NCBI GenBank assembly: GCA_964017065.1
Contig: OZ024788.1
Coordinates: 10,972,457-11,036,456 of the forward strand
Length of the DNA stretch: 64,000 bases
Source: Haliclona indistincta
Lineage: Eukaryota; Porifera; Demospongiae; Haplosclerida; Chalinidae
Direction: 5' to 3'
A program made the translations under genes and the position numbers. Below, in pieces: positions 45,645 to 62,487 of this stretch. The number at the start of each line of letters is the position of its first letter. Positions within the stretch are counted from its first letter, which is position 1. The notes beneath the pieces are model-generated. The model had not been told where the DNA came from. It saw only the letters and a program-made list of their open reading frames with translations, and searched no databases.

Positions 45645-48600
45645 ATGGCGGAAAGTATTTCAGGAGACGTCACCACAGCAGCGCTACAACCAGCTGGCTG
45701 GAATCAGCCGTGCTCAGAGGAGCATTTGGCTAAGATTGCCATGATGATTACTGATTGGCGAGCAGTCTCTCCTTTCCTGGGACTAACAGAAGCTGAGGAG
45801 ATTGCTGTACAAGGGTCCAATCCTCAATCAGTGCCAGCCCAAAAGATTGCAATGCTGAGAAAATGGAAGCAGAAACGAGGAGCAAAGGCCACGTACAAGC
45901 GATTGTGTCGAGTATTCAGAGATTGTGGTTCGCATGATCTAGAAGAGAAAGTCACAGAACTGCTGGTAGCAGAGAGTAGCAGCTCTTCAGACGAGGAAGG
46001 TGAGAAACAGAAATAGAAAAACATGGGCGGGACTCATATACATGATAGCTTGTATTGTGGACTAACTGCATGGTATGATTCTGTCTTTGTTATGACTCAT
46101 TGCAGGTGTGGAAGGAGCCAACAAACAGCCTGTGAGAGGATACCAGGGTATGATACACATTCCTGCACTAATTGATTGTTGTGTTAGTGACTCCATTATC
46201 ATTACTCCTCTCACTACACAGGTACATCACTCACTGTGTATGTGGACAGACTCAAGAGATTCTACCAAAATCCACCTACAACATGGCTTCCACTACCGAA
46301 TTGCAAGCACATCAAACTGGCAGTGACTAAAGAGAAGGGAATGAGACACGGACGAGAACCTGATGCACAGATCGAGTGTAGAGTTAAAGGCGAGATAGAG
46401 CCACTCATGGATAGTAAGGTGCTGGTAGATATGGATAGCATCTTTGATGATGACACCTTTGAGAATGCTCGTAGACCGATGGTAATTCTTGTAGAAGGAG
46501 CATTAGGGTCAGGCAAGACCAGCCTGGCCTTTTACTACTGCCAGAAATGGGCAGAAGGTAACCTGAGTATGTTTGACGTTGTGGCTCTTGTCTATCTGCG
46601 TCACCCAGCTGTTCATTCAGCAGGGTTGGACTTGACCTTACACCAGCTTCTCCTCCTGGCCTGTGGAAGCGATGGTAGTCAAAAGATGATTGATATCGTA
46701 GAAGAGATGGTCAAATGTGTTGAGAATGGTTTAAAATTGCTTTTAATTCTAGATGGGTGGGATGAAGCACCGGCTTGCCTTCGAAAACCTCCAGATCCAA
46801 AATATCCTCCCGATAATTCATACCTTGGCAAAGTCCTTTGTTCCATTTCATCCAACACTACCATCCTCATCACCTCTCGACCAGACTCCTCACTTGACCT
46901 ACACAACAGAGCCAATGTTAACCGAGTGGAGATTCTTGGGTTCACCAAGGAGAGCATTCATGACTACTTTCTGGAAGCATTGTCTACTCAGCTATCCTCT
47001 GATAAAGTAAAAGATGAGATCGTGAAATTGAGAGATCATTTCCGAAAATACCCAGCCATTGAAAGCAGCTGTTATATACCACTCAATGCTGCCATTCTTA
47101 TACTCGTGTATCTGGAACACAACTGTACTCTACCCACCACCCACTATGAGCTACTCTATCAGCTTCTCCTGTGCTGTATCAACCGTGAGGTGACAACTCG
47201 TCATTCACAAACCTTATCCACAGTATCCTCACTTGATGACCTTCCTTGTGACCTCAAGGAACAGCTAGACAGCATCTGCACACTTGCATACGAGGGAATC
47301 ATGCAAAACAAAGTTGTCTTCACACAAGATGAGCTTCCATCTATCTTGCCTACACCTGCACAAGAGGATCTCCCCGCCATGGGAGTGCTTCAGAGGGTCC
47401 AGTGGTTCAGTATTAGCAGCAAAACAATGTCCTACAACTTCATTCACCTCTCAATACAAGAACTGCTTGCTGCTTATTATATCTCTAAGATGGAAGAAAG
47501 TGAGCAGGTGAGAGTGTTCCAAACCCTACTTGGTGAGCCTCGGTTCTCTGCTGTACTACAGTTCTATGCTGGGTTCACCAAGCTCACCAATCAAGGTGTA
47601 CGAAACATCATCACTGGAACAGATTTCACTGACGACAAGTCATCAGGGCTTTCTCTGCTAAGTTACATGAGATGTTTCTTTGAGGCTCAAGTTTGCGATC
47701 AGTCACTCTATCAGCAAATAGTACCAAAATTGAATGGAAAAGTGAATCTTCGACTCATCTCTATGAATCCACTAGACTGTATGTCTTTTGGGTATTTCTT
47801 GGCATTTGCTCTCAAGAACGCTCGTCAATTACATGTAAGCCTTTCCGACTGCAATATTGATGACCACTCATTGTGTGTACTGATGGGAGAGCTCTCCAAG
47901 AATGCTGAGGCATCCCGAGAAGGTGTCTTACACGGAGTGACAGAACTGGATATCAGTTATAACAAGATTGGAGACAAAGGAATAGCTTACATTACCACTG
48001 CTCTTCATACAAACGCTACCATGAGAACTCTTGTTCTGAGGGATTGTCACATATCTAACGTGGGTGCAGAGTCACTAGCTAGAGCACTTGCTGTTAACAC
48101 GTCACTGCAGAAGTTAGTTATGGGTCGTAGCAATATTGGGTACAATGGATTATGTGAATTAGCGACTGCTCTTCAAACTAACACTACTTTGAAAGATCTG
48201 TCTTTCTTATATTGCCATGATTGGATGACAGACCAGGAAGTGTTGTTACTATCATCAGCTATAAGACACTCCTTCATGGAACGATTGGTACTACACTGGT
48301 CATCTACAGATCCTGGCAACACACTAAAGAAGATCGGAGAGAGTGTCAGGAGGAGCAAGCTAAGAGGACTAAGACTAGCATGTTCATCACAACAATCACA
48401 AGTGAAACCTGATATTATGAAGAAAGCGAGAGAGTGGGTAGAGTGTCTGGAGATCGGTGGTAAAGACCTGATACAGTCTCAGGAGAACAGTCTGCTTCAA
48501 ACACTTACATTGAATATTTATTGTATTGATTCTAACATACGACCACTTCTGGAACAAGTACGACAAACACTTGAAGTAACAGCAGCAACAGTCAACACAG

Positions 48601-48650
48601 CAAGACAACAGAAAGGACTACCACTACTGCATCATGTTGTTTATGTTTAA
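45645..48650 (+). CDS. NLR receptor 5 (Death-NACHT-LRR), intact
   Basis: Three exons, 45645-45999, 46106-46147 and 46222-48650, join in phase 1 to 2826 nt, 941 residues. It is type A, like copies 1 and 3. The Death domain, acidic Ser cluster, NACHT (GALGSGKTS, LLLILDGWDE, TSRPDSS) and LRR block are all open. Conserved LRR framework residues match the other copies, but exposed positions differ (for example RTLVLRDCHIS against RTLDVNGCHIS in copy 1). It is followed tail to tail by the only DNPEP copy that retains all catalytic exons, so this unit may be closest to the ancestral arrangement. Ligand and partner are unknown. Confidence 0.92.
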
Positions 48651-48731: not shown

Positions 48732-51700
48732 TCACTCTGTTGTGATATTATTGTCTACATCAGTGAAATTGTTGAAGTAGCTCTGGAGTAGTGAAAACAA
48801 TGTATTGTATCAGTTGCTCTACTCACATCATATACTTACCTCAAACAGCATAGTGGCTTGTATCACTCCTGTTGTACAACACATCTCACGAATCGAGTGC
48901 ATACTCAACTGAGGAGTACCAATATCTGAGAGAGGGAATAAAGCCTCAATATAATGTAAAATTTCTGTGCAATCGTGTTTGTGAACACATTGTTTTTCCG
49001 GACAACTAGCATGTGTTTAAGGCAACACCCAAATACACTGATTTACTGGATTGAGCTGGATTGGATTTTTAGTGAGCCCATAATTAGTGAGAAGTGCTTG
49101 ACTTACAACTGGGGAATGCAATGTGGGTGCAATGAAGTGGAGGTGACGAAGCTTTCTCAAAAGACTGTCAGATACTAATTAGAATTGTGATACCAGCAAC
49201 CCATAAGGACACTAGGAACAGTATATTGGTAAACACAGCAGCTCAATCAACAGGCTAGGCACGCTAAGCCAGCTTGATGCTCCACCACTTCTGAGCTGGG
49301 TCATGCAGCATCATCATCTGTTATTAATGCTTTATCCACACCAGCCTCTCAATACTGACATTGATAATATTATGACACTATCAGTGCTCAGGCTCACCCC
49401 ACACAATGACAATACATGTAGTTCTTGTGTTTACAGCAGTCATGTCCACTCACCCACAGTCCTCATTCCTAGTTTAGCCGACATCATTGGACCAATAGTG
49501 GAGCCACAGTGACTATCATTACGTACTATCACCTCCTGCATGGGGACCCAGCCCCTACTGGCTACCTCACGTAGTATAGCTGCTGTGATAGCTGTTGTGG
49601 CATATCGCTGGTTAGCATTGAACTTGAGCACAACACCCTACACATGGTGATAATAGATACCAACTATGAACTTGTAGCTTCCGAATGGGTAAAGGCGGTA
49701 ATAAACATCCATGACGTATAGTCGCTCCATGTACGTAAAGGCGTAATATATATAAAGGTGTATTACAGTATTATTTCTTACCTCATGTAGCATTGGTTGA
49801 TGATTCTGTTCATGCTTCTCTCTATAAACACAGATATACATGGTATATGGTAATTGTGTACATGATCATCATGTGTTGCAGTGGAGCATGAACTATTTTA
49901 CATACACATAATTTGGTCGTATGACCAGTGACTCACGGGTAGTTAGGGTGTACTCCGTGTGCCTGATCAGCACTGACCAGAAATGATTTAGTCATTGCCT
50001 CTTCAAATGCTGTATCTGAACCACCTGCATACCAGTATGACAGATGATATGACATGTACTACGTGTCACACTATGATCATGTGACAGGTCATGTGACAAT
50101 CACCTGCTGACAGTCTCCTGAGAGCAAATTCAACCAATGAAGAATTAGCACCTTGAGCACTTGTGGAACCGACCTGGTCACATGATAAACACATGATAGT
50201 CACATGACAATAATACACTGCACCTCTTCATTGTCAAACATAGCCACCATTCGAATGTTAGTATCGTCATTGAGAGTATTCAAACTGCGAATTAATCCCT
50301 ATTATATAATTATGTGTAAAAGCAACTACTTCATACCTGTAATTAGAATCAATATGGTATTATTCCTCAATACCGGTATAACAGTTCATTAAGTTGTCGA
50401 TACGAGGAGCAAATATGAACTCATCCAAAGCTCCACCAATGACCTGAAAGAGGAGAAAGAACAACAGTGAACTCTTGATGAATGAGTTAAAACAATGGGC
50501 GACAGACTTGGACAGAGAGGCAGCTACACGCCAGCACAAGAAGATTGTTATGCAACTAGAGCGGGCTCAATGTAAATTAAGAAGCTTGCTGTTATATATG
50601 ATATGCATTGTGTGTTGCTGGCATTGATGTTCATAAATCAGCTCAAGCATTCATTGACAGTACTAGTATCTTACAGCAGGGAAGGTATTCATTGAATGTA
50701 CTAGTATCTTACAGCAGGGAAGGTATTCATTGACAGTACTAGTATCTTACAGCAGGGAAGGTATTCATTGAATGTACTAGTATCTTACAGCAGGGAAGGC
50801 ATTCATTGAATGTACTAGTATCTTACAGCAGGGAAGGCATTCATTGAATGTACTAGTATCTTACAGCAGGGAAGGTATTCATTGAATGTACTAGTATCTT
50901 ACAGCAGGGAAGGTATTCATTGAATGTACTAGTATCTTACAGCAGGGAAGGTATTCATTGAATGTACTAGTATCTTACAGCAGGGAAGGCATTCATTGAA
51001 TGTACTAGTATCTTACAGCAGGGAAGGTATTCATTGAATGTACTAGTATCTTACAGCAGGGAAGGCATTCATTGAATGTACTAGTATCTTACAGCAGGGA
51101 AGGTATTCATTGACAGTACTAGTATCTTACAGCAGGGAAGGCATTCATTGATGTACTAGTATCTTTCAGCAGGGAAGGCATTCATTGAATGTACTAGTAT
51201 CTTACAGCAGGGAAGGTATTCATTGACAGTACTAGTATCTTACAGCAGGGAAGGTATTCATTGAATGTACTAGTATCTTACAGCAGGGAAGGTATTCATT
51301 GACAGTACTAGTATCTTACAGCAGGGAAGGTATTCATTGAATGTACTAGTATCTTACAGCAGGGAAGGTATTCATTGAATGTACTAGTATCTTACAGCAG
51401 GGAAGGTATTCATTGACAGTACTAGTATCTTACAGCAGGGAAGGTATTCATTGAATGTACTAGTATCTTACAGCAGGGAAGGTATTCATTGAATGTACTA
51501 GTATCTTACAGCAGGGAAGGTATTCATTGAATGTACTAGTATCTTACAGCAGGGAAGGCATTCATTGACAGTACTAGTATCTTACAGCAGGGAAGGTATT
51601 CATTGAATGTACTAGTATCTTACAGCAGGGAAGGTATTCATTGAATGTACTAGTATCTTACAGCAGGGAAGGCATTCATTGAATGTACTAGTATCTTACA

Positions 51701-54700
51701 GCAGGGAAGGTATTCATTGACAGTACTAGTATCTTACAGCAGGGAAGGAATTCATTGAATGTACTAGTATCTTACAGCAAGGAAGGTATTCATTGAATGT
51801 ACTAGTATCTTACAGCAGGGAAGGCATTCATTGAATGTACTAGTATCTTACAGCAGGGAAGGTATTCATTGACAGTACTAGTATCTTACAGCAGGGAAGG
51901 CATTCATTGAATGTACTAGTATCTTACAGCAGGGAAGGTATTCATTGACAGTACTAGTATCTTACAGCAGGGAAGGTATTCATTGAATGTACTAGTATCT
52001 TACAGCAGGGAAGGTATTCATTGACAGTACTAGTATCTTACAGCAGGGAAGGTATTCATTGAATGTACTAGTATCTTACAGCAGGGAAGGTATTCATTGA
52101 ATGTACTAGTATCTTACAGCAGGGAAGGCATTCATTGAATGTACTAGTATCTTACAGCAGGGAAGGTATTCATTGAATGTACTAGTATCTTACAGCAGGG
52201 AAGGCATTCATTGAATGTACTAGTATCTTACAGCAGGGAAGGTATTCATTGAATGTACTAGTATCTTACAGCAGGGAAGGCATTCATTGACAGTACTAGT
52301 ATCTTACAGCAGGGAAGGTATTCATTGAATGTACTAGTATCTTACAGCAGGGAAGGTATTCATTGAATGTACTAGTATCTTACAGCAGGGAAGGCATTCA
52401 TTGACAGTACTAGTATCTTACAGCAGGGAAGGTATTCATTGAATGTACTAGTATCTTACAGCAGGGAAGGCATTCATTGACAGTACTAGTATCTTACAGC
52501 AGGGAAGGTATTCATTGAATGTACTAGTATCTTACAGCAGGGAAGGTATTCATTGAATGTACTAGTATCTTACAGCAGGGAAGGCATTCATTGACAGTAC
52601 TAGTATCTTACAGCAGGGAAGGTATTCATTGAATGTACTAGTATCTTACAGCAGGGAAGGTATTCATTGAATGTACTAGTATCTTACAGCAGGGAAGGTA
52701 TTCATTGAATGTACTAGTATCTTACAGCAGGGAAGGTATTCATTGAATGTACTAGTATCTTACAGCAGGGAAGGTATTCATTGTATGTACTAGTATCTTA
52801 CAGCAGGGAAGGTATTCATTGAATGTACTAGTATCTTACAGCAGGGAAGGCATTCATTGAATGTACTAGTATCTTACAGCATGGAAGGTATTCATTGAAT
52901 GTACTAGTATCTTACAGCAGGGAAGGTATTCATTGACAGTACTAGTATCTTACAGCAGGGAAGGTATTCATTGAATGTACTAGTATCTTACAGCAGGGAA
53001 GGTATTCATTGAATGTACTAGTATCTTACAGCAGGGAAGGTATTCATTGAATGTACTAGTATCTTACAGCAGGGAAGGCATTCATTGAATGTACTAGTAT
53101 CTTACAGCAGGGAAGGCATTCATTGAATGTACTAGTATCTTACAGCATGGAAGGTATTCATTGAATGTACTAGTATCTTACAGCAGGGAAGGTATTCATT
53201 GAATGTACTAGCATCTTACAGCAGGGAAGGCATTCATTGAATGTACTAGTATCTTACAGCAGGGAAGGTATTCATTGACAGTACTAGTATCTTACAGCAG
53301 GGAAGGCATTCATTGATGTACTAGTATCTTACAGCAGGGAAGGCATTCATTGAATGTACTAGTATCTTACAGCAGGGAAGGTATTCATTGACAGTACTAG
53401 TATCTTACAGCAGGGAAGGTATTCACTGAATGTACTAGTATCTTACAGCAGGGAAGGTATTCATTGACAGTACTAGTATCTTACAGCAGGGAAGGCATTC
53501 ATTGAATGTACTAGTATCTTACAGCTGGGAAGGTATTCATTGAATGTACTAGTATCTTACAGCAGGGAAGGCATTCATTGAATGTACTAGTATCTTACAG
53601 CAGGGAAGGTATTCATTGAATGTACTAGTATCTTACAGCAGGGAAGGTATTCATTGAATGTACTAGTATCTTACAGCAGGGAAGGCATTCATTGAATGTA
53701 CTAGTATCTTACAGCAGGGAAGGCATTCATTGAATGTACTAGTATCTTACAGCATGGAAGGTATTCATTGAATGTACTAGTATCTTACAGCAGGGAAGGT
53801 ATTCATTGAATGTACTAGCATCTTACAGCAGGGAAGGCATTCATTGAATGTACTAGTATCTTACAGCAGGGAAGGTATTCATTGACAGTACTAGTATCTT
53901 ACAGCAGGGAAGGCATTCATTGATGTACTAGTATCTTACAGCAGGGAAGGCATTCATTGAATGTACTAGTATCTTACAGCAGGGAAGGTATTCATTGACA
54001 GTACTAGTATCTTACAGCAGGGAAGGTATTCATTGAATGTACTAGTATCTTACAGCAGGGAAGGTATTCATTGACAGTACTAGTATCTTACAGCAGGGAA
54101 GGCATTCATTGAATGTACTAGTATCTTACAGCTGGGAAGGTATTCATTGAATGTACTAGTATCTTACAGCAGGGAAGGCATTCATTGAATGTACTAGTAT
54201 CTTACAGCAGGGAAGGTATTCATTGAATGTACTAGTATCTTACAGCAGGGAAGGTATTCATTGAATGTACTAGTATCTTACAGCAGGGAAGGCATTCATT
54301 GAATGTACTAGTATCTTACAGCAGGGAAGGCATTCATTGAATGTACTAGTATCTTACAGCATGGAAGGTATTCATTGAATGTACTAGTATCTTACAGCAG
54401 GGAAGGTATTCATTGAATGTACTAGCATCTTACAGCAGGGAAGGCATTCATTGAATGTACTAGTATCTTACAGCAGGGAAGGTATTCATTGACAGTACTA
54501 GTATCTTACAGCAGGGAAGGCATTCATTGATGTACTAGTATCTTACAGCAGGGAAGGCATTCATTGAATGTACTAGTATCTTACAGCAGGGAAGGTATTC
54601 ATTGACAGTACTAGTATCTTACAGCAGGGAAGGTATTCATTGAATGTACTAGTATCTTACAGCAGGGAAGGTATTCATTGACAGTACTAGTATCTTACAG

Positions 54701-57700
54701 CAGGGAATGCATTCATTGAATGTACTAGTATCTTACAGCAGGGAAGGCATTCATTGAATGTACTAGTATCTTACAGCATGGAAGGTATTCATTGACAGTA
54801 CTAGTATCTTACAGCAGGGAAGGCATTCATTGATGTACTAGTATCTTACAGCAGGGAAGGCATTCATTGAATGTACTAGTATCTTACAGCAGGGAAGGTA
54901 TTCATTGAATGAACTAGTATCTTACAGCAGGGAAGGTATTCATTGAATGTACTAGTATCTTACAGCAGGGAAGGTATTCATTGAATGTACTAGTATCTTA
55001 CAGCAGGGAAGGCATTCATTGAATGTACTAGTATCTTACAGCAGGGAAGGTATTCATTGACAGTACTAGTATCTTACAGCAGGGAAGGTATTCATTGAAT
55101 GTACTAGTATCTTACAGCAGGGAAGGTATTCATTGAATGTACTAGTATCTTACAGCAGGGAAGGCATTCATTGAATGTACTAGTATCTTACAGCAGGGAA
55201 GGTATTCATTGAATGTACTAGTATCTTACAGCAGGGAAGGCATTCATTGAATGTACTAGTATCTTACAGCAGGGAAGGTATTCATTGAATGAACTAGTAT
55301 CTTACAGCAGGGAAGGCATTCATTGAATGTACTAGTATCTTACAGCAGGGAAGGTATTCATTGACAGTACTAGTATCTTACAGCAAGGAAGGCATTCATT
55401 GATGTACTAGTATCTTACAGCATGGAAGGTATTCATTGACAGTACTAGTATCTTACAGCAGGGAAGGCATTCATTGATGTACTAGTATCTTACAGCAGGG
55501 AAGGCATTCATTGAATGTACTAGTATCTTACAGCAGGGAAGGTATTCATTGAATGTACTAGTATCTTACAGCAGGGAAGGCATTCATTGACAGTACTAGT
55601 ATCTTACAGCAGGGAAGGTATTCATTGAATGTACTAGTATCTTACAGCAGGGAAGGTATTCATTGAATGTACTAGTATCTTACAGCAGGGAAGGTATTCA
55701 TTGAATGTACTAGTATCTTACAGCAGGGAAGGCATTCATTGATGTACTAGTATCTTACAGCAGGGAAGGCATTCATTGAATGTACTAGTATCTTACAGCA
55801 GGGAAGGTATTCATTGAATGTACTAGTATCTTACAGCAGGGAAGGCATTCATTGACAGTACTAGTATCTTACAGCAGGGAAGGTATTCATTGAATGAACT
55901 AGTATCTTACAGCAGGGAAGGTATTCATTGAATGTACTAGTATCTTACAGCAGGGAAGGTATTCATTGAATGTACTAGTATCTTACAGCAGGGAAGGCAT
56001 TCATTGAATGTACTAGTATCTTACAGCAGGGAAGGTATTCATTGACAGTACTATAGTATCTTACAGCAGGGAAGGTATTCATTGAATGTACTAGTATCTT
56101 ACAGCAGGGAAGGTATTCATTGAATGTACTAGTATCTTACAGCAGGGAAGGCATTCATTGAATGTACTAGTATCTTACAGCAGGGAAGGTATTCATTGAA
56201 TGTACTAGTATCTTACAGCAGGGAAGGCATTCATTGAATGTACTAGTATCTTACAGCAGGGAAGGTATTCATTGAATGAACTAGTATCTTACAGCAGGGA
56301 AGGCATTCATTGAATGTACTAGTATCTTACAGCAGGGAAGGTATTCATTGACAGTACTAGTATCTTACAGCAAGGAAGGCATTCATTGATGTACTAGTAT
56401 CTTACAGCATGGAAGGTATTCATTGACAGTACTAGTATCTTACAGCAGGGAAGGCATTCATTGATGTACTAGTATCTTACAGCAGGGAAGGCATTCATTG
56501 AATGTACTAGTATCTTACAGCAGGGAAGGTATTCATTGAATGTACTAGTATCTTACAGCAGGGAAGGTATTCATTGAATGTACTAGTATCTTACAGCAGG
56601 GAAGGTATTCATTGAATGTACTAGTATCTTACAGCAGGGAAGGTATTCATTGACAGTACTAGTATCTTACAGCAGGGAAGGCATTCATTGAATGTACTAG
56701 TATCTTACAGCAGGGAAGGTATTCATTGAATGTACTAGTATCTTACAGCAGGGAAGGTATTCATTGAATGTACTAGTATCTTACAGCAGGGAAGGTATTC
56801 ATTGAATGTACTAGTATCTTACAGCAGGGAAGGTATTCATTGACAGTACTAGTATCTTACAGCAGGGAAGGCATTCATTGAATGTACTAGTATCTTACAG
56901 CAGGGAAGGTATTCATTGAATGTACTAGTATCTTACAGCAGGGAAGGCATTCATTGAATGTACTAGTATCTTACAGCAGGGAAGGTATTCATTGAATGAA
57001 CTAGTATCTTACAGCAGGGAAGGCATTCATTGAATGTACTAGTATCTTACAGCAGGGAAGGTATTCATTGAATGTACTAGTATCTTACAGCAGGGAAGCT
57101 ATTCATTGAATGTACTAGTATCTTACAGCAGGGAAGGTATTCATTGAATGTACTAGTATCTTACAGCAGGGAAGCTATTCATTGAATGAACTAGTATCTT
57201 ACAGCAGGGAAGGTATTCATTGAATGTACTAGTATCTTACAGCAGGGAAGGTATTCATTGAATGTACTAGTATCTTACAGCAGGGAAGGTATTCATTGAG
57301 TGTACATGTATCTTACAGCAGGGAAGGTATTCATTGAATGTACTAGTATCTTACAGCAGGGAAGGTATTCATTGAATGTACTAGTATCTTACAGCAGGGA
57401 AGGCATTCATTGAATGTACTAGTATCTTACAGCAGGGAAGGTATTCATTGAATGTACTAGTATCTTACAGCAGGGAAGGTATTCATTGAATGTACTAGTA
57501 TCTTACAGCAGGGAAGGCATTCATTGAGTGTACATGTATCTTACAGCAGGGAAGGTATTCATTGAATGTACTAGTATCTTACAGCAGGGAAGGTATTCAT
57601 TGAATGTACTAGTATCTTACAGCAGGGAAGGTATTCATTGAATGTACTAGTATCTTACAGCAGGGAAGGCGTCAGCTAGACACAGCTCAAAGTCCATGAT

Positions 57701-60700
57701 GTCAGTGGGTTGGCAGTTGAGTGAGTCTGCCAGCATCTTGATAAGCAGTGGGTGATGATTGTGAGACTATAATGGAAAGAGAAAAAATTGATGCTTTTTT
57801 CACCAAATAGTATTACAACGCCTATAGCGTAGATGAAGTTCAGAATTTTCTCACAATATTATTGATTCTGTGTAGAGAACAGTGTTTACTGACTAGTACG
57901 AACTTGTAGATAAACAACTTGCTTAGCAGCGTTTTTGAAAAATTCGCTGATGGGAGGCTGTTATGATCCATTATACACGGGTCACTAATGCACTCTCTCT
58001 GTTTATCGACGATAACTCACGATTCAAAGCAGGTAGCTTGAAAAGGCTGTGTCAATCTCTCGAGAATGTTGTTGGCTTGAAATCAGATGCTTTTCTTCAA
58101 CTAGCTAACGCTACACATTGCATATTCTTGCGAGAAAATGTACAGCATTTGTGGCGGAGAGTGTGCTTAGCGCTTTGTAGATTTCGACGAGAGTCATTGA
58201 CTATGTGAGGACGCACGTTATGATGCTTCACAGCAACTTTTGTACTATTCAGTAGGCTCTGTTGGATGAGACAACAAAAATAATTTTGCTCATTAATATT
58301 CATAAACGAACAGTAGCCCGCCACCTTAATCATTATTTTTAGTTTCTATCGGGATTTAGAAAATTTATGGTAGTGAATATTCCATACCACTGAAGGAGGA
58401 GAGCATTCTTTAGCAGCTGATTTACAAGATCCCTCTAACTGGACAGCAGCTTGAGTAGCAAGCACTGGAATACTGAGAGGGATAGAAAATCAGATCACCG
58501 TAAGACCATAGACCTACGTATAATGTGTAGTATAGCCAGCATAGGACAACATACATGTGTGTCTCCTTGTTGGGACTGAATTGTTTGTGTACGTCAGCAG
58601 AAGCTAGGTGGATACAGATATTGGGAACCTTTAGTATCGGCTTATCAATGTGGACTAGCTTGTGAGATAGACCTTGAGGAGTCTGAGAGAGAGAGAGAGA
58701 GAGAGAGAGGCGAGGGAGGGAGAGAGGGAGGGAGAGAGAACAAGTGCACATGTGGAACATACTATATTAACCAGTTCATTATGCAAGTGTGTATCTATAA
58801 CGATTCTGACCTTGACAATAACTCGTCCAGCTAGTTTGAGATCCCTGTCAAACCAGGTATGCCATATTCCTCCACCATAGCACTCCACCCCTACACTGAT
58901 ATACCCACAGCGTTGCCGTGACGACCGTGGCTTCACCTGCAAAGAACACAGCAATGAATGCTCAGATTAAAATAGCCAGCAACAAGAACTACTTGCAGCT
59001 TTTCATACTTCACGTGCAAGATACTCACTTGCCGAAAGCTAGAAGCATCGTATCAAAGCATGACAATACACAAACTATAGCTAGGACAATCAAACTACTG
59101 CCGACATACACATGTACCTTGAGACAAGGACTGTCAGTATGTGCTCCTACAATAGTGAATCCATTGCCTGGAGTGTACTTACCACCAACAGCAAACACTA
59201 TGATAGTAGAAAAGTTATCGGTGAAGAAATACTAATAGGAGGGAGAGAGGGAGAGAGGAGGGGAGACAGCAGAAAGGAGAGAGGGAGGTAGGGAGAGATG
59301 AGAGAGGGAGAGAGGAGAGGGAGAGAAAGAGGGGAGGGAGGAGAGGAATGGAGGGAGAGAGGGAGGGAAGAGAGGGTATGAAGAGGAGAGATAATATATT
59401 ATTGCATTCGTAGTGGTTCTATTATGTACTGTTCAATTTATAGACTGTGTATTTCAGAAGAAAATATTATTGTGGGCACACAAGTAATAACAAAAGACTG
59501 TGTCACACAAACCAAAGGACCAGATGCACTTAGTAAAAGAGTTTGTCACAATGAACAACGCATACAAATGTGTTGATACTGTAAAATGTCAAACCTTGTT
59601 TCCTGGCTCTATCTTCCAGGTGTCTCTCTCCTTCAGTTCAGTGAACCCAGCCCCCACTAACACACGCTTGCATTCCTCAACAACTAACAAACAAAAAAAC
59701 ACACCACGATAACTAGAGGGGTCCGACACGAGTGAAATCTCGTATGATGACTGGTGAAATCACAGTTGAAATCATCTCCGTATACTAACACACATGCTTA
59801 TATTTTATCAGTGCAATCACTCTGAAATTAGTGAAATCTTGTATGTGAAATCAATCCGTGTCGTACCCCTCGACACAACTCACTATGTCATTTAGCAGTT
59901 AGCAAAAGAATAAAGATTTCTTGTTATTTTCAACTACGTTCAAATAAGAAAATATTCGGACATTCTAACTCAGTAGGAGAGAAAACGTGTCCTCGAGAAG
60001 ATCCAAAACTGGTGTGCTGTGAGGAATCAACTACTGTATTAACACATGATTGTGTGTCTATTCAATGAAATACAGTACTTTGCTGTTATATCAGGTAATT
60101 TGGTGGTTGGTGAATTACAAGTTTTTGTCAAAATTTGCTTTTACAATAATGTGAACTAGGAACCAAAATTAAAATCAGATATTGGGAAGTTCGTCAAAAT
60201 TTTGGTATAGTACTAATATACCCACGTACCATGAAATGGTGATGGTATAGTACTAATATACCCAAGTACCATGAAATGGTGATGGTATAGTACTAATATA
60301 CCCACGTACCATGAAATGGTGATGGTATAGTACTAATATACCCACGTACCATGAAATGGTGATGGTATAGTACTAATATACCCACGTACCATGAAATGGT
60401 GATGGTATAGTACTAATATACCCACGTACCATGAAATGGTGATGGTATAGTACTAATATACCCACGTACCATGAAATGGTGATGGTATAGTACTAATTTG
60501 TATCATAGTAGCCTCTAAGATCAAAGGCACCGCCAGGGAAATATATCGTATGTATCCCTGCAATGGGGATTTTCCCTGTATATTCACCGGGTGGGTATAC
60601 AGGGAAAATCCCCAGCGGTAAAGCCACTAATAGAGTCAGATGACTCACTCCACACAGTAAACAGTAAGGTAACCGCGCCTAATTCCGGACGGTTCCTAAT

Positions 60701-62487
60701 TCCGGACACTCTACTTTTCAAGCTGCATTTCTCAAGAACGCGTTGACGTAGTTTAGCCATTTTTACTACGCAGGTAGAGCTATCATAGGAGCATCATCTC
60801 ACTGAGTTTTAAGTACTAAACTATTACCAGTGGTGCAGGAATACGGGTAGAACTAGCACTACTAAATAATTGATTGAAACCGCACCCAACGTGATTTGGT
60901 TTTGTCCACCAAGCTTAGCTACTGTTGCTTCGGCGAGTGATTTTGCACGCTGACAGACTTCAATATCACTACATCTAACTTTTTATGATAGCAATGAGCG
61001 GCAGTAAAATAGTTGAGTCAACTACTGCTGTAAATTTTAGTCAAAATTCAACCTACGTCGATTTCTATCTTATTTTGCACTGCAGTTCTGTTGAATACTT
61101 CAACTGTGGTTGATGTTACAGTGCTGAGTATGCAGCAGCAAGGTTGTTCAACCACTCTCTGGTAATTTCTGTCATGCAAACAGCAGTTACAGGCATTTTA
61201 CACAAAAATTTCGTTCCCAGCCTGATTCGGTTGCTCAATAATCTAAAGTCAAGCCTGGATTAGTAGTCTTGGGAACTGCAGTGAGTTGATTGAGTCTTTC
61301 ATCGCTTAACATCGAAAGTAATAGCTTTGGCAACTTGCACCATGCTTGCAGGGTTACACAGACCAACCTGTAGAAGTGTCCGGAATTAGGGTCCGCCCCC
61401 TAAAATTGAAGACTTCCAAAAAGCGGTAAACAAACCTGCCGCTCGTTTACAAATCGAACAATTACTGCTAGAATTGTACAGTGTCGTCAAGAAGAAGGCC
61501 CAAGGATTCTACTAAGGTATAACACTTGGAACTTTCGCCCGTAGAAATTACTGAAATTCCGATAATAGCACAACGTGTCCGGAATTAGGGGCGGTTACCT
61601 TATTGACTGCGGGAGAAGCTTCGGTGGGGAGTGGTTCACCCATACCGAAGGTGAGGCTGGGCTAGGTATGCTTGTTTCTTATACACAGCTTTCATGCTGA
61701 TACTAATGGGACCTCATAAACGATTTACCTCATTAATTATGTCAATGGTTGCTATGATACAAGTCACCTATTCCATGCCCACCTGGTATGTATACCATTT
61801 ACACTTGGTATTGTGCTAATAAACCCTCGGGCTACGCCCTCGGGTTTATTAACACAATACCTCATGCATATGGTATACACACCTGGTACGCATGGAATAA
61901 CTACTACATACCCACGTACCATGAAATGGTGATGGTATAGTACTAATATACCCACGTACCATGAAATGGTGATGGTATAGTACTAATATACCCACGTACC
62001 ATGAAATGGTGATGGTATAGTACTAATATACCCACGTACCATGAAATGGTGATGGTATAGTACTAATATACCCACGTACCATGAAATGGTGATGGTATAG
62101 TACTAATATACCCACGTACCATGAAATGGTGATGGTATAGTACTAATATACCCACGTACCATGAAATGGTGATGGTATAGTACTAATATACCCACGTACC
62201 ATGAAATGGTGATGGTATAGTACTAATATACCCACGTACCATGAAATGGTGATGGTATAGTACTAATATACCCACGTACCATGAAATGGTGATGGTATAG
62301 TACTAATATACCCACGTATCATGAAATGGTGATGGTATAGTACTAATATACCCACGTACCATGAAATGGAGGTTGGAGGTCAAATCATAGAACTCTGCAG
62401 GTCAAGTGCTAATGAAATATAAACTGTATCATTGATAAAGTCCACCAACTTCTTGGCTGCTTCACTGATCACTTTCTGAGCATGCAT
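48732..62487 (-). CDS. DNPEP: aspartyl aminopeptidase (M18), probable functional copy
   Basis: Exons on the minus strand: 59595-59683, 59118-59231, 58811-58936, 58555-58682, 58388-58472, 57659-57766, 50383-50443, about 50224-50298, 50104-50173, 49937-50024, 49782-49821, 49454-49637, 48840-48925 and 48732-48782. A probable first exon is 62425-62487 ([19 protein letters not shown]). All motifs of the M18 zinc peptidase are present: [56 protein letters not shown]. The enzyme removes N-terminal Asp/Glu in the cytosol as a dodecamer. Two points are unresolved. The SPFH-coding piece next to exon 1 lies within a minisatellite, and its joint to exon 1 is not in phase in my model. The joint after DNLMN is one base out of phase with the splice sites I can see. 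The rest joins in phase. Confidence 0.85.
50648..57670. repeat. 7-kb, 38-bp minisatellite in a DNPEP intron
   Basis: About 185 tandem copies of a 38-bp unit (CATTGAATGTACTAG and TATCTTACAGCAGGGAAGG, joined by TATT or CATT). Variants include T/C after AAGG, AATG/ACAG after CATTG, and a 37-bp unit with ATG. Read on the minus (gene) strand, every unit contains CCTTCCCTGCT|GTAAGAT, the last 11 exonic bases and the splice donor of the DNPEP exon at 57659-57766. The first unit is that real junction. Rare variants (AGCATCTTAC, CAGCTGGGAAG, GCATGGAAGG, GAATGAACTAG) recur periodically and mark higher-order repeats. Confidence 0.97.
57767..58387. other. DNPEP intron with unassigned sequence
   Basis: An intron of about 0.6 kb between the SHNHH and VLATQ exons. 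In DNPEP remnant 3 the equivalent is about 0.15 kb, so some 0.45 kb was gained here or lost there. A frame at 57963-58208 has no recognisable domain. Confidence 0.45.
59232..59395. repeat. GA-rich low-complexity tract
   Basis: Purine-rich (GGGAGAGA)n-like tract. On the DNPEP strand it is a long polypyrimidine run directly upstream of the GAHTDSP exon acceptor. Shorter versions lie at the same place in remnants 1-3. Confidence 0.85.
60204..60497. repeat. 40-bp minisatellite, part 1
   Basis: About seven copies of a 40-bp unit (GGTATAGTACTAATATACCC plus ACGTACCATGAAATGGTGAT). On the DNPEP strand each unit reads TCACCATTTCATG|GTACGTGGG: the codons for SPFH followed by a consensus donor, and an AG (ATATTAG) further on. 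It is continuous in sequence with part 2 at 61906. Confidence 0.95.
60565..60613. repeat. perfect hairpin, 17-bp arms
   Basis: GGGGATTTTCCCTGTAT and its exact complement ATACAGGGAAAATCCCC are separated by a short loop. It probably marks a short inverted-repeat element inserted in the minisatellite. Confidence 0.8.
60665..61603. mobile_element. 0.94-kb TIR element (non-autonomous)
   Basis: The termini AGGTAACCGCGCCTAATT (left) and the complement of AGGTAACCGCCCCTAATT (right) are inverted, extending to CCGGAC with one mismatch in 24. TA is present on both sides, as in Tc1/mariner-type insertions. A second, inner pair of CCTAATTCCGGAC inverted copies lies near 60690 and 61378. No transposase frame is visible. 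Confidence 0.7.
61769..61899. mobile_element. 131-bp hairpin MITE
   Basis: The whole segment is a near-perfect inverted repeat (TATTCCATGC...GTGCTAATAAACCC / GGGTTTATTAACAC...GCATGGAATA) with a CG-rich apex TCGGGCTACGCCCTCGG. It is inserted at the right border of the split minisatellite. Confidence 0.75.
61906..62369. repeat. 40-bp minisatellite, part 2
   Basis: About 11.5 copies of the same 40-bp unit as at 60204, ending at CCCACGTACCATGAAATGGAGG. The last unit diverges after ATGAAATGG, giving the gene-strand sequence CCTCCATTTCATG|GTACGTGGG. So this border carries another version of the exon end. Confidence 0.95.

What the first reader, a model, noticed from the sequence alone, without database searches (positions are those of the whole stretch)
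50648..57670. About 185 copies of a DNPEP splice donor arranged as a 7-kb minisatellite
The 38-bp unit is not arbitrary intron DNA. In the gene sense each unit contains CCTTCCCTGCT|GTAAGAT, the last exonic bases and donor of the DNPEP exon at 57659-57766, and the terminal unit is the real junction. Transcripts would carry about 185 near-consensus donors (GTAAGA) in a row before the next acceptor at 50443. Inference: this could act as a sink for U1 snRNP, produce many alternative exon ends, or slow splicing, so array length may tune DNPEP expression. Minisatellites that include a splice site are rarely described.
Basis: partly seen in the sequence, partly recalled or inferred. Interest (0 to 1): 0.9.

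Follow-up and report, generated by a model that had tools for sequence, protein, structure and literature searches.

The report
Splice donor amplified into a minisatellite
In a sponge-like animal genome the end of one exon and its splice donor have been copied head to tail about 185 times inside an aminopeptidase gene, and sister genes carry 1 to 53 copies, which makes a natural test of how cells pick one splice site among many identical ones.

Summary
A 38-bp unit repeats 185 times (window 50649-57669, minus-strand gene). Each unit is the last 11 bp of a DNPEP exon plus the first 27 bp of its intron; 184 of 185 units keep GTAAGA.

The surroundings change the reading. The window copy is one of five near-complete DNPEP paralogues lying among Death-NACHT-LRR (NLR) genes. 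Four carry the array (185, 35, 32, 53 units); the fifth has one unit in a 217-nt intron. Only the first donor can give full-length protein: the other intact donors lie beyond an in-frame stop. The donor pairs weakly with U1, tenth of 11, so 'near-consensus' overstates it.

The window copy has GA for GT at the next exon's donor; the 53-unit copy has a frameshift in exon 2. The 35- and 32-unit copies are intact in exons 2-15 as tested. Donor columns are not significantly more conserved than the rest (P = 0.12).

Best reading: a junction-spanning minisatellite grown by unequal exchange and tolerated because the first donor is used. U1 sink or expression tuner: untested. Human IFI6 is a precedent.

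The parts
50649..57669 (-). 38-bp minisatellite, 185 units; each = last 11 bp of exon 7 + first 27 bp of intron 7, with donor GTAAGA in 184 of 185
57659..57766 (-). DNPEP exon 7 of this report's numbering (SHNHHPLL...LADAFPA), 108 nt, phase 0; its last 11 bp are the start of the first repeat unit
50366..50443 (-). DNPEP exon 8 ([26 protein letters not shown]), 78 nt, phase 0; acceptor tttcag intact
50364..50365 (-). Donor position of exon 8: GA in the window copy, GT in the four other near-complete copies C, E, G and H
50444..57658 (-). Intron 7, 7215 nt, almost wholly the array; no AATAAA or ATTAAA in it
58388..59231 (-). DNPEP exons 3-6 (59231-59118, 58936-58811, 58682-58555, 58472-58388), all with AG/GT borders and no stop
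49454..50298 (-). DNPEP exons 9-13 (50298-50224, 50173-50104, 50024-49937, 49821-49782, 49637-49454), AG/GT borders and no stop
48735..48926 (-). DNPEP C-terminal exons 14 and 15 with the intron between them ([11 protein letters not shown]... to ...NNITTE, then a stop)
45645..48650 (+). NLR gene (Death domain ORF 45645-46016; NACHT + LRR ORF 46236-48650), tail to tail with this DNPEP copy

Best explanation
A stretch spanning the exon 7 / intron 7 junction of a DNPEP gene (11 bp exon + 27 bp intron) was tandemly duplicated and then grew by unequal exchange or slippage into a minisatellite, before or during duplication of the gene among NLR genes. The units stay nearly identical because they are young and turned over, not because donors are shown to be selected. 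In the transcript the first donor is the only productive one: the later intact donors lie past an in-frame stop. The most likely mode of working is that array-bearing copies splice mainly from the first donor, through exon definition across the 108-nt exon and the head start of the first-transcribed site, while some use of later donors yields stop-containing RNAs for decay. SHOWN: the array, the junction content, the paralogue series 1/32/35/53/185, the in-frame stops, intact tested frames in C and E, the lost exon 8 donor of the window copy B and the exon 2 frameshift of G. INFERRED: growth by unequal exchange (from block duplications inside the array), first-donor use (from the intact, apparently constrained frames of C and E), leakage and decay.
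For: Unit content and position. The same unit at the same junction in three paralogues with 35, 32 and 53 units, and a single unit in H. The tail of array C equals the intron of single-unit copy H apart from one base in the unit. Duplicated blocks inside array B: 16 units at 0-based unit indices 79 and 95, 13 units at 29 and 55, as unequal exchange leaves. First in-phase stop 9 or 21 nt past donor 1; 183 of 184, 34 of 35, 30 of 31 and 52 of 53 GTAAGA donors of B, C, E and G lie beyond it, the remaining one being donor 1. No stop in exons 3-13 of 5 of 5 near-complete copies; exon 2 and exons 14-15 also open in C and E. Replacement changes are few between array-bearing copies: B-E 6 N to 8 S, P = 0.0066; C-E 5 to 8, P = 0.0036. 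[quoted passage not shown]
Against: No RNA data: use of any donor is unseen. Two of the four array-bearing copies are broken, and they hold the two longest arrays: B (185; exon 8 donor GA) and G (53; 5-bp insertion in exon 2). Of the six pairs among array-bearing copies, two (B-G P = 0.10, E-G P = 0.058) do not reject neutrality; the ten pairs are not independent, P values are uncorrected, and gene conversion could mimic constraint. SRSF1 can favour the intron-proximal 5' site (PMC5585400, abstract and passages), which would predict use of the last units; PMC8316553 also reports tethering of cryptic intronic sites, so later units could be held too. Copy H could be a collapsed array instead of the ancestral state.
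Confidence: 0.58

Rival explanations
1. Decay only: the window copy is a pseudogene, the array grew freely because the copy no longer needed correct splicing, and nothing about its splicing matters.
For: Exon 8 donor GA in B; the two longest arrays are in the two broken copies B and G, the shorter ones (35, 32) in copies intact as tested (only four arrays); many neighbouring DNPEP copies are partial or broken.
Against: Arrays of 35 and 32 units sit in copies C and E with tested splice sites and frames intact; the window copy has no stop in exons 3-13 and few replacement changes against H (6 N to 8 S).
Confidence: 0.23
2. The array is a regulatory element: many weak U1 sites downstream of a weak donor recruit U1 or SR proteins and raise, or compete with and lower, use of the first donor, so that unit number sets the DNPEP dose.
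For: The real donor is weak (-4.3 kcal/mol, tenth of 11), 303 of 305 units in four arrays keep GTAAGAT, donors are somewhat more accessible than average in the predicted fold of a 12-unit piece (0.61 against 0.44 unpaired, no shuffle control), U1 genes with ACTTACCTG are present (4 of 4 read, of 5 hits).
Against: Donor columns are not significantly less variable than the others (2 of 26 distinct variants in 7 of 38 columns, P = 0.12). Unit number differs widely between paralogues, and H does without an array. The two longest arrays sit in broken copies.
Confidence: 0.14
3. Assembly artefact in the number of units.
For: Long arrays are often mis-sized; no reads were available here.
Against: 20 unit types in an ordered pattern with resolved block duplications; no N in the window, the only N runs in the 242.5 kb held being at C6 11142392 and 11212592; three further arrays at paralogues.
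Confidence: 0.05

Closest known systems
[quoted passage not shown] seen as citation and one citing passage; paper not held)
   Same: A minisatellite at an exon end whose units carry splice donors; two downstream units are used as donors, giving three mRNA species, according to the citing passage in PMC4526556.
   Different: Here the unit is 38 bp, includes 11 bp of exon and 27 bp of intron, reaches 185 copies over 7 kb, exists as a paralogue series in one genome, and the later donors lie past an in-frame stop. Use of later donors is unknown here. That the IFI6 unit is short (12 bp) is recalled.
Intron gain by tandem genomic duplication (potato RdRp case, PMC4974935, search listing only)
   Same: Tandem duplication of a segment in a gene, leading to new splicing.
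   Different: No new intron arises here: an existing donor is multiplied inside an existing intron. The comparison rests on the listing and on recall.
Intronic VNTRs such as hTERT VNTR2-2nd (PMC2915984, search listing and one reference-list passage)
   Same: Minisatellite in a protein-coding gene.
   Different: I did not read that paper's sections; whether splice junctions lie in its unit was not checked.

Membership tests
DNPEP / M18 aspartyl aminopeptidase gene | Sequence match to aspartyl aminopeptidases over the exons flanking the array | tested here: met
   4dyo_A E 9.5e-51, 7u5h_A, 3var_A; Amphimedon queenslandica protein 68% identical
DNPEP / M18 aspartyl aminopeptidase gene | All splice sites of the window copy intact | tested here: not met
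   Of 11 exons modelled (3-13), 10 have GT donors; exon 8 has GA. Exon 1 not found; exons 2, 14 and 15 read by eye only
Minisatellite | Head-to-tail units of roughly 10-100 bp in many copies | tested here: met
   38 bp x 185
Minisatellite | Length polymorphism between individuals | not testable with these tools
   One assembly; paralogues differ (185/35/32/53/1)
Splice-donor minisatellite (IFI6 type) | Units carry a 5' splice site and the array is continuous with the real exon end | tested here: met
   303 of 305 units in four arrays keep GTAAGAT; first unit is the real junction
Splice-donor minisatellite (IFI6 type) | More than one unit is used as donor in RNA | not testable with these tools
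   No RNA data

The most novel reading that the evidence does not exclude
The array is a functional U1-binding rheostat: about 185 evenly spaced weak donors on one nascent RNA, with unit number in each paralogue setting how much productive splicing occurs. As a bolder variant, the pyrimidine tract CCTTCCCTGCT followed by GTAAG could act as an AAG acceptor, so that 38-bp units could be spliced in as 33-nt in-frame micro-exons ([11 protein letters not shown]) between exons 7 and 8.
Probability: 0.1. Interest if true: 0.85.

Novelty: new variant of a known kind. Interest (0 to 1): 0.5.

Why it matters
The units share positions -11 to +27 of the real splice site, so the sequence at the site itself hardly tells the first donor from its copies: position, order of transcription or the exon further upstream must. 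Five paralogues with 1, 32, 35, 53 and 185 units in one genome form a natural dose series for testing how a spliceosome picks one 5' splice site among near-identical ones. It also shows how an intron can differ between paralogues from about 0.2 to 7 kb by repeat growth (or collapse) alone.

Tried and rejected
Selection on the donors: tested by distinct variants per column, not significant. Full-consensus donor: rejected by U1 pairing energies, computed with a recalled U1 5' end (AUACUUACCUG); the U1 genes of this genome share ACTTACCTG but differ from that 11-mer by more than one base at its 5' end, which touches only positions +7 and beyond. Dispersed repeat: the whole-genome matches listed all lie on C6 at the DNPEP copies (301 matches, list cut, 8 candidates of the first look; a lower bound). 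Polyadenylation signals AATAAA and ATTAAA in intron 7: none in B, C, E and G. Seed of the first duplication: exon TTCCCTGC and intron TTCCTGC of H are a possible pair, but they lie 33 nt apart, not 38, so this is no more than a guess. Species: not identified. Crambe crambe (143.20 Mb, 124 scaffolds, longest 9.77 Mb) does not fit 144.03 Mb, 46 contigs, C6 of 14.29 Mb; the top named DNPEP hit is Amphimedon queenslandica at 68%, so 'sponge' is an inference. Literature on multiple-donor minisatellites and splice-junction repeats: searches; apart from IFI6 I saw no like case in those listings. Row drops: the last unit of each of four arrays was left out of the column test (301 of 305 units); exon 5 was left out of the N/S test because copy C has a 12-nt deletion there that shifts my model, and the dN/dS values still include it, so C values there are inflated and I do not use them. 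Copy H was read only over the 3166 bases of L005 (exons 3-13). Exon 1 was not found in any copy.

Full report
WHAT IS THERE. The gene reads on the minus strand. Exon 7 of this report's numbering (57766-57659) ends ...GACGCCTTCCCTGCT and is followed by GTAAGATACTAG; from there a 38-bp unit repeats 185 times down to 50649. The intron is 7215 nt and ends in tttcag before exon 8 at 50443. Each unit is 11 bp of exon plus 27 bp of intron. GTAAGA is intact in 184 of 185 units.

WHICH GENE. The translated exons match solved aspartyl aminopeptidases (4dyo_A E 9.5e-51) and, among named proteins in the listed best 120 of 640, best the sponge Amphimedon queenslandica (68% identity; an environmental protein, P0001, is 74%). 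The host is therefore probably a demosponge; the genome is 144.03 Mb in 46 contigs and I could not name it. The plus strand of the window carries Death, NACHT and LRR domains; a search with the NLR ORF finds 20 groups of hits in the 242.5 kb held, all on the plus strand by their first hit, at least two groups holding two copies. DNPEP copies lie between them on the minus strand, many of them partial; all 88 DNPEP matches of the whole genome lie on C6 (93 of 105 candidates scored).

PARALOGUES. Five copies are near-complete: B (window), C, E, G and H. Units: B 185, C 35, E 32, G 53, H 1. GTAAGAT is intact in 303 of 305 units of the four arrays. Intron 7 is 7215, 1492, 1446 and 2194 nt in B, C, E and G and 217 nt in H. 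Three other copies with this exon (A, D, F) are altered there: in A and D the donor runs straight into exon 8 sequence, so array and exon 8 start are missing; F has a short stretch beginning GTAACC. The end of array C runs into the same sequence as the single unit of H, apart from one base in the unit. H could be ancestral or a collapsed array; I cannot tell.

INTEGRITY. Exons 3-13 of B, C, E, G and H have no stop. Donors of exons 3-13 are GT in C, E, G and H; in B ten of eleven are GT and exon 8 has GA at 50365-50364. In C the exon 5 acceptor was displaced in my model by a 12-nt deletion. Exon 2 is open in B, C and E; G has a 5-bp insertion there that shifts the frame, and exons 14-15 end in the same stop in B, C, E and G. 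So of four array-bearing copies, C and E (35 and 32 units) are intact as far as tested, and B and G (185 and 53 units) are broken. For B, retention of intron 8 gives a stop at once (GAG GAA TAA), and skipping of exon 8 (78 nt, in frame) would remove the APRID stretch, whose Asp is a metal ligand in this family (recalled). The copy in the window probably makes no working enzyme, whatever the array does.

CONSEQUENCE OF THE ARRAY. Translation past donor 1 meets a stop 9 nt (B, C, G: TAG) or 21 nt (E: TGA) into the intron; 183 of 184, 34 of 35, 30 of 31 and 52 of 53 GTAAGA(T/A) donors of B, C, E and G lie beyond it. Only donor 1 is productive. Since the units share -11 to +27, the site sequence hardly marks the first one.

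DONOR STRENGTH. Pairing with a recalled U1 5' end gives -4.3 kcal/mol for the unit donor, against -1.9 to -11.5 for the eleven donors of H; it is tenth of eleven. This genome has five U1 hits above the cut-off; four were read and all have ACTTACCTG, though their first bases differ from the recalled 11-mer. In the predicted fold of 12 units the donor hexamer is unpaired with mean probability 0.61 against 0.44 overall (no shuffle control).

SELECTION. Over 301 interior units, 26 distinct variants fall on 38 columns, 2 of them in the 7 donor columns (4.8 expected, P = 0.12). So the intact donors need no selection. Between copies, replacement changes are fewer than neutral in 8 of 10 pairs at P < 0.05 uncorrected (C-E 5 N / 8 S, P = 0.0036; B-E 6 / 8, P = 0.0066), not in B-G (0.10) and E-G (0.058). 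This suggests, weakly, that array-bearing copies have made protein. Pairs are not independent and gene conversion may contribute.

HISTORY. The order of unit types in B shows duplicated blocks (16 units at indices 79 and 95; 13 units at 29 and 55), the footprint of unequal exchange, and speaks against an artefact.

HOW IT MOST LIKELY WORKS. Exon definition over the 108-nt exon, and the fact that donor 1 is made first and may stay tethered to polymerase (human cells, PMC8316553, abstract and passages), favour donor 1. Later donors would give stop-containing RNA. Against this, the same paper reports tethering of cryptic intronic sites as well, and a bias towards intron-proximal sites is documented for SRSF1 (PMC5585400, abstract and passages), so RNA data are needed. 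That the two longest arrays sit in broken copies fits growth freed by loss of function, on four arrays only.

KNOWN KIND. A minisatellite that provides several splice donors was described for 6-16/IFI6 (Turri et al. 1995; title seen as a citation; content from one citing passage). The present case differs in unit size, extent, paralogue series and frame consequence; hence a new variant of a known kind.

Noticed in passing
window 60203-60497 and 61908-62369: A second, nearly perfect minisatellite (40 bp, 7.4 and 11.6 copies, 99% match) upstream of DNPEP exon 2 of the same copy.
   Followed up: no
C6 10985676-11210422 (window 46236-48650 is one of the loci): Tandem cluster of Death-NACHT-LRR genes, 20 groups of hits on the plus strand by one search, with many partial DNPEP copies between them on the other strand.
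   Followed up: partly
window 48650 and 48735: The NLR reading frame and the last DNPEP exon match end tail to tail about 85 bp apart, so their transcript ends probably overlap.
   Followed up: no
window 50649-57669, plus strand: On the opposite strand each unit reads ...TACTAGTATCTTACAG|CAGGGAAG|GTATTC, which looks like a branch site, an acceptor and a donor; an NLR transcript running on could meet about 185 acceptor-like sites.
   Followed up: no
C6 11041459-11042704 (copy C; L011): Intron 8 of copy C is about 1.2 kb instead of about 70 nt and holds inverted repeats, including an inverted copy of its own 5' end; it looks like an insertion.
   Followed up: no
C6 11193246 and below (copy G exon 2): A 5-bp insertion, a short tandem duplication of neighbouring bases by eye, shifts the frame of exon 2 in copy G.
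   Followed up: partly
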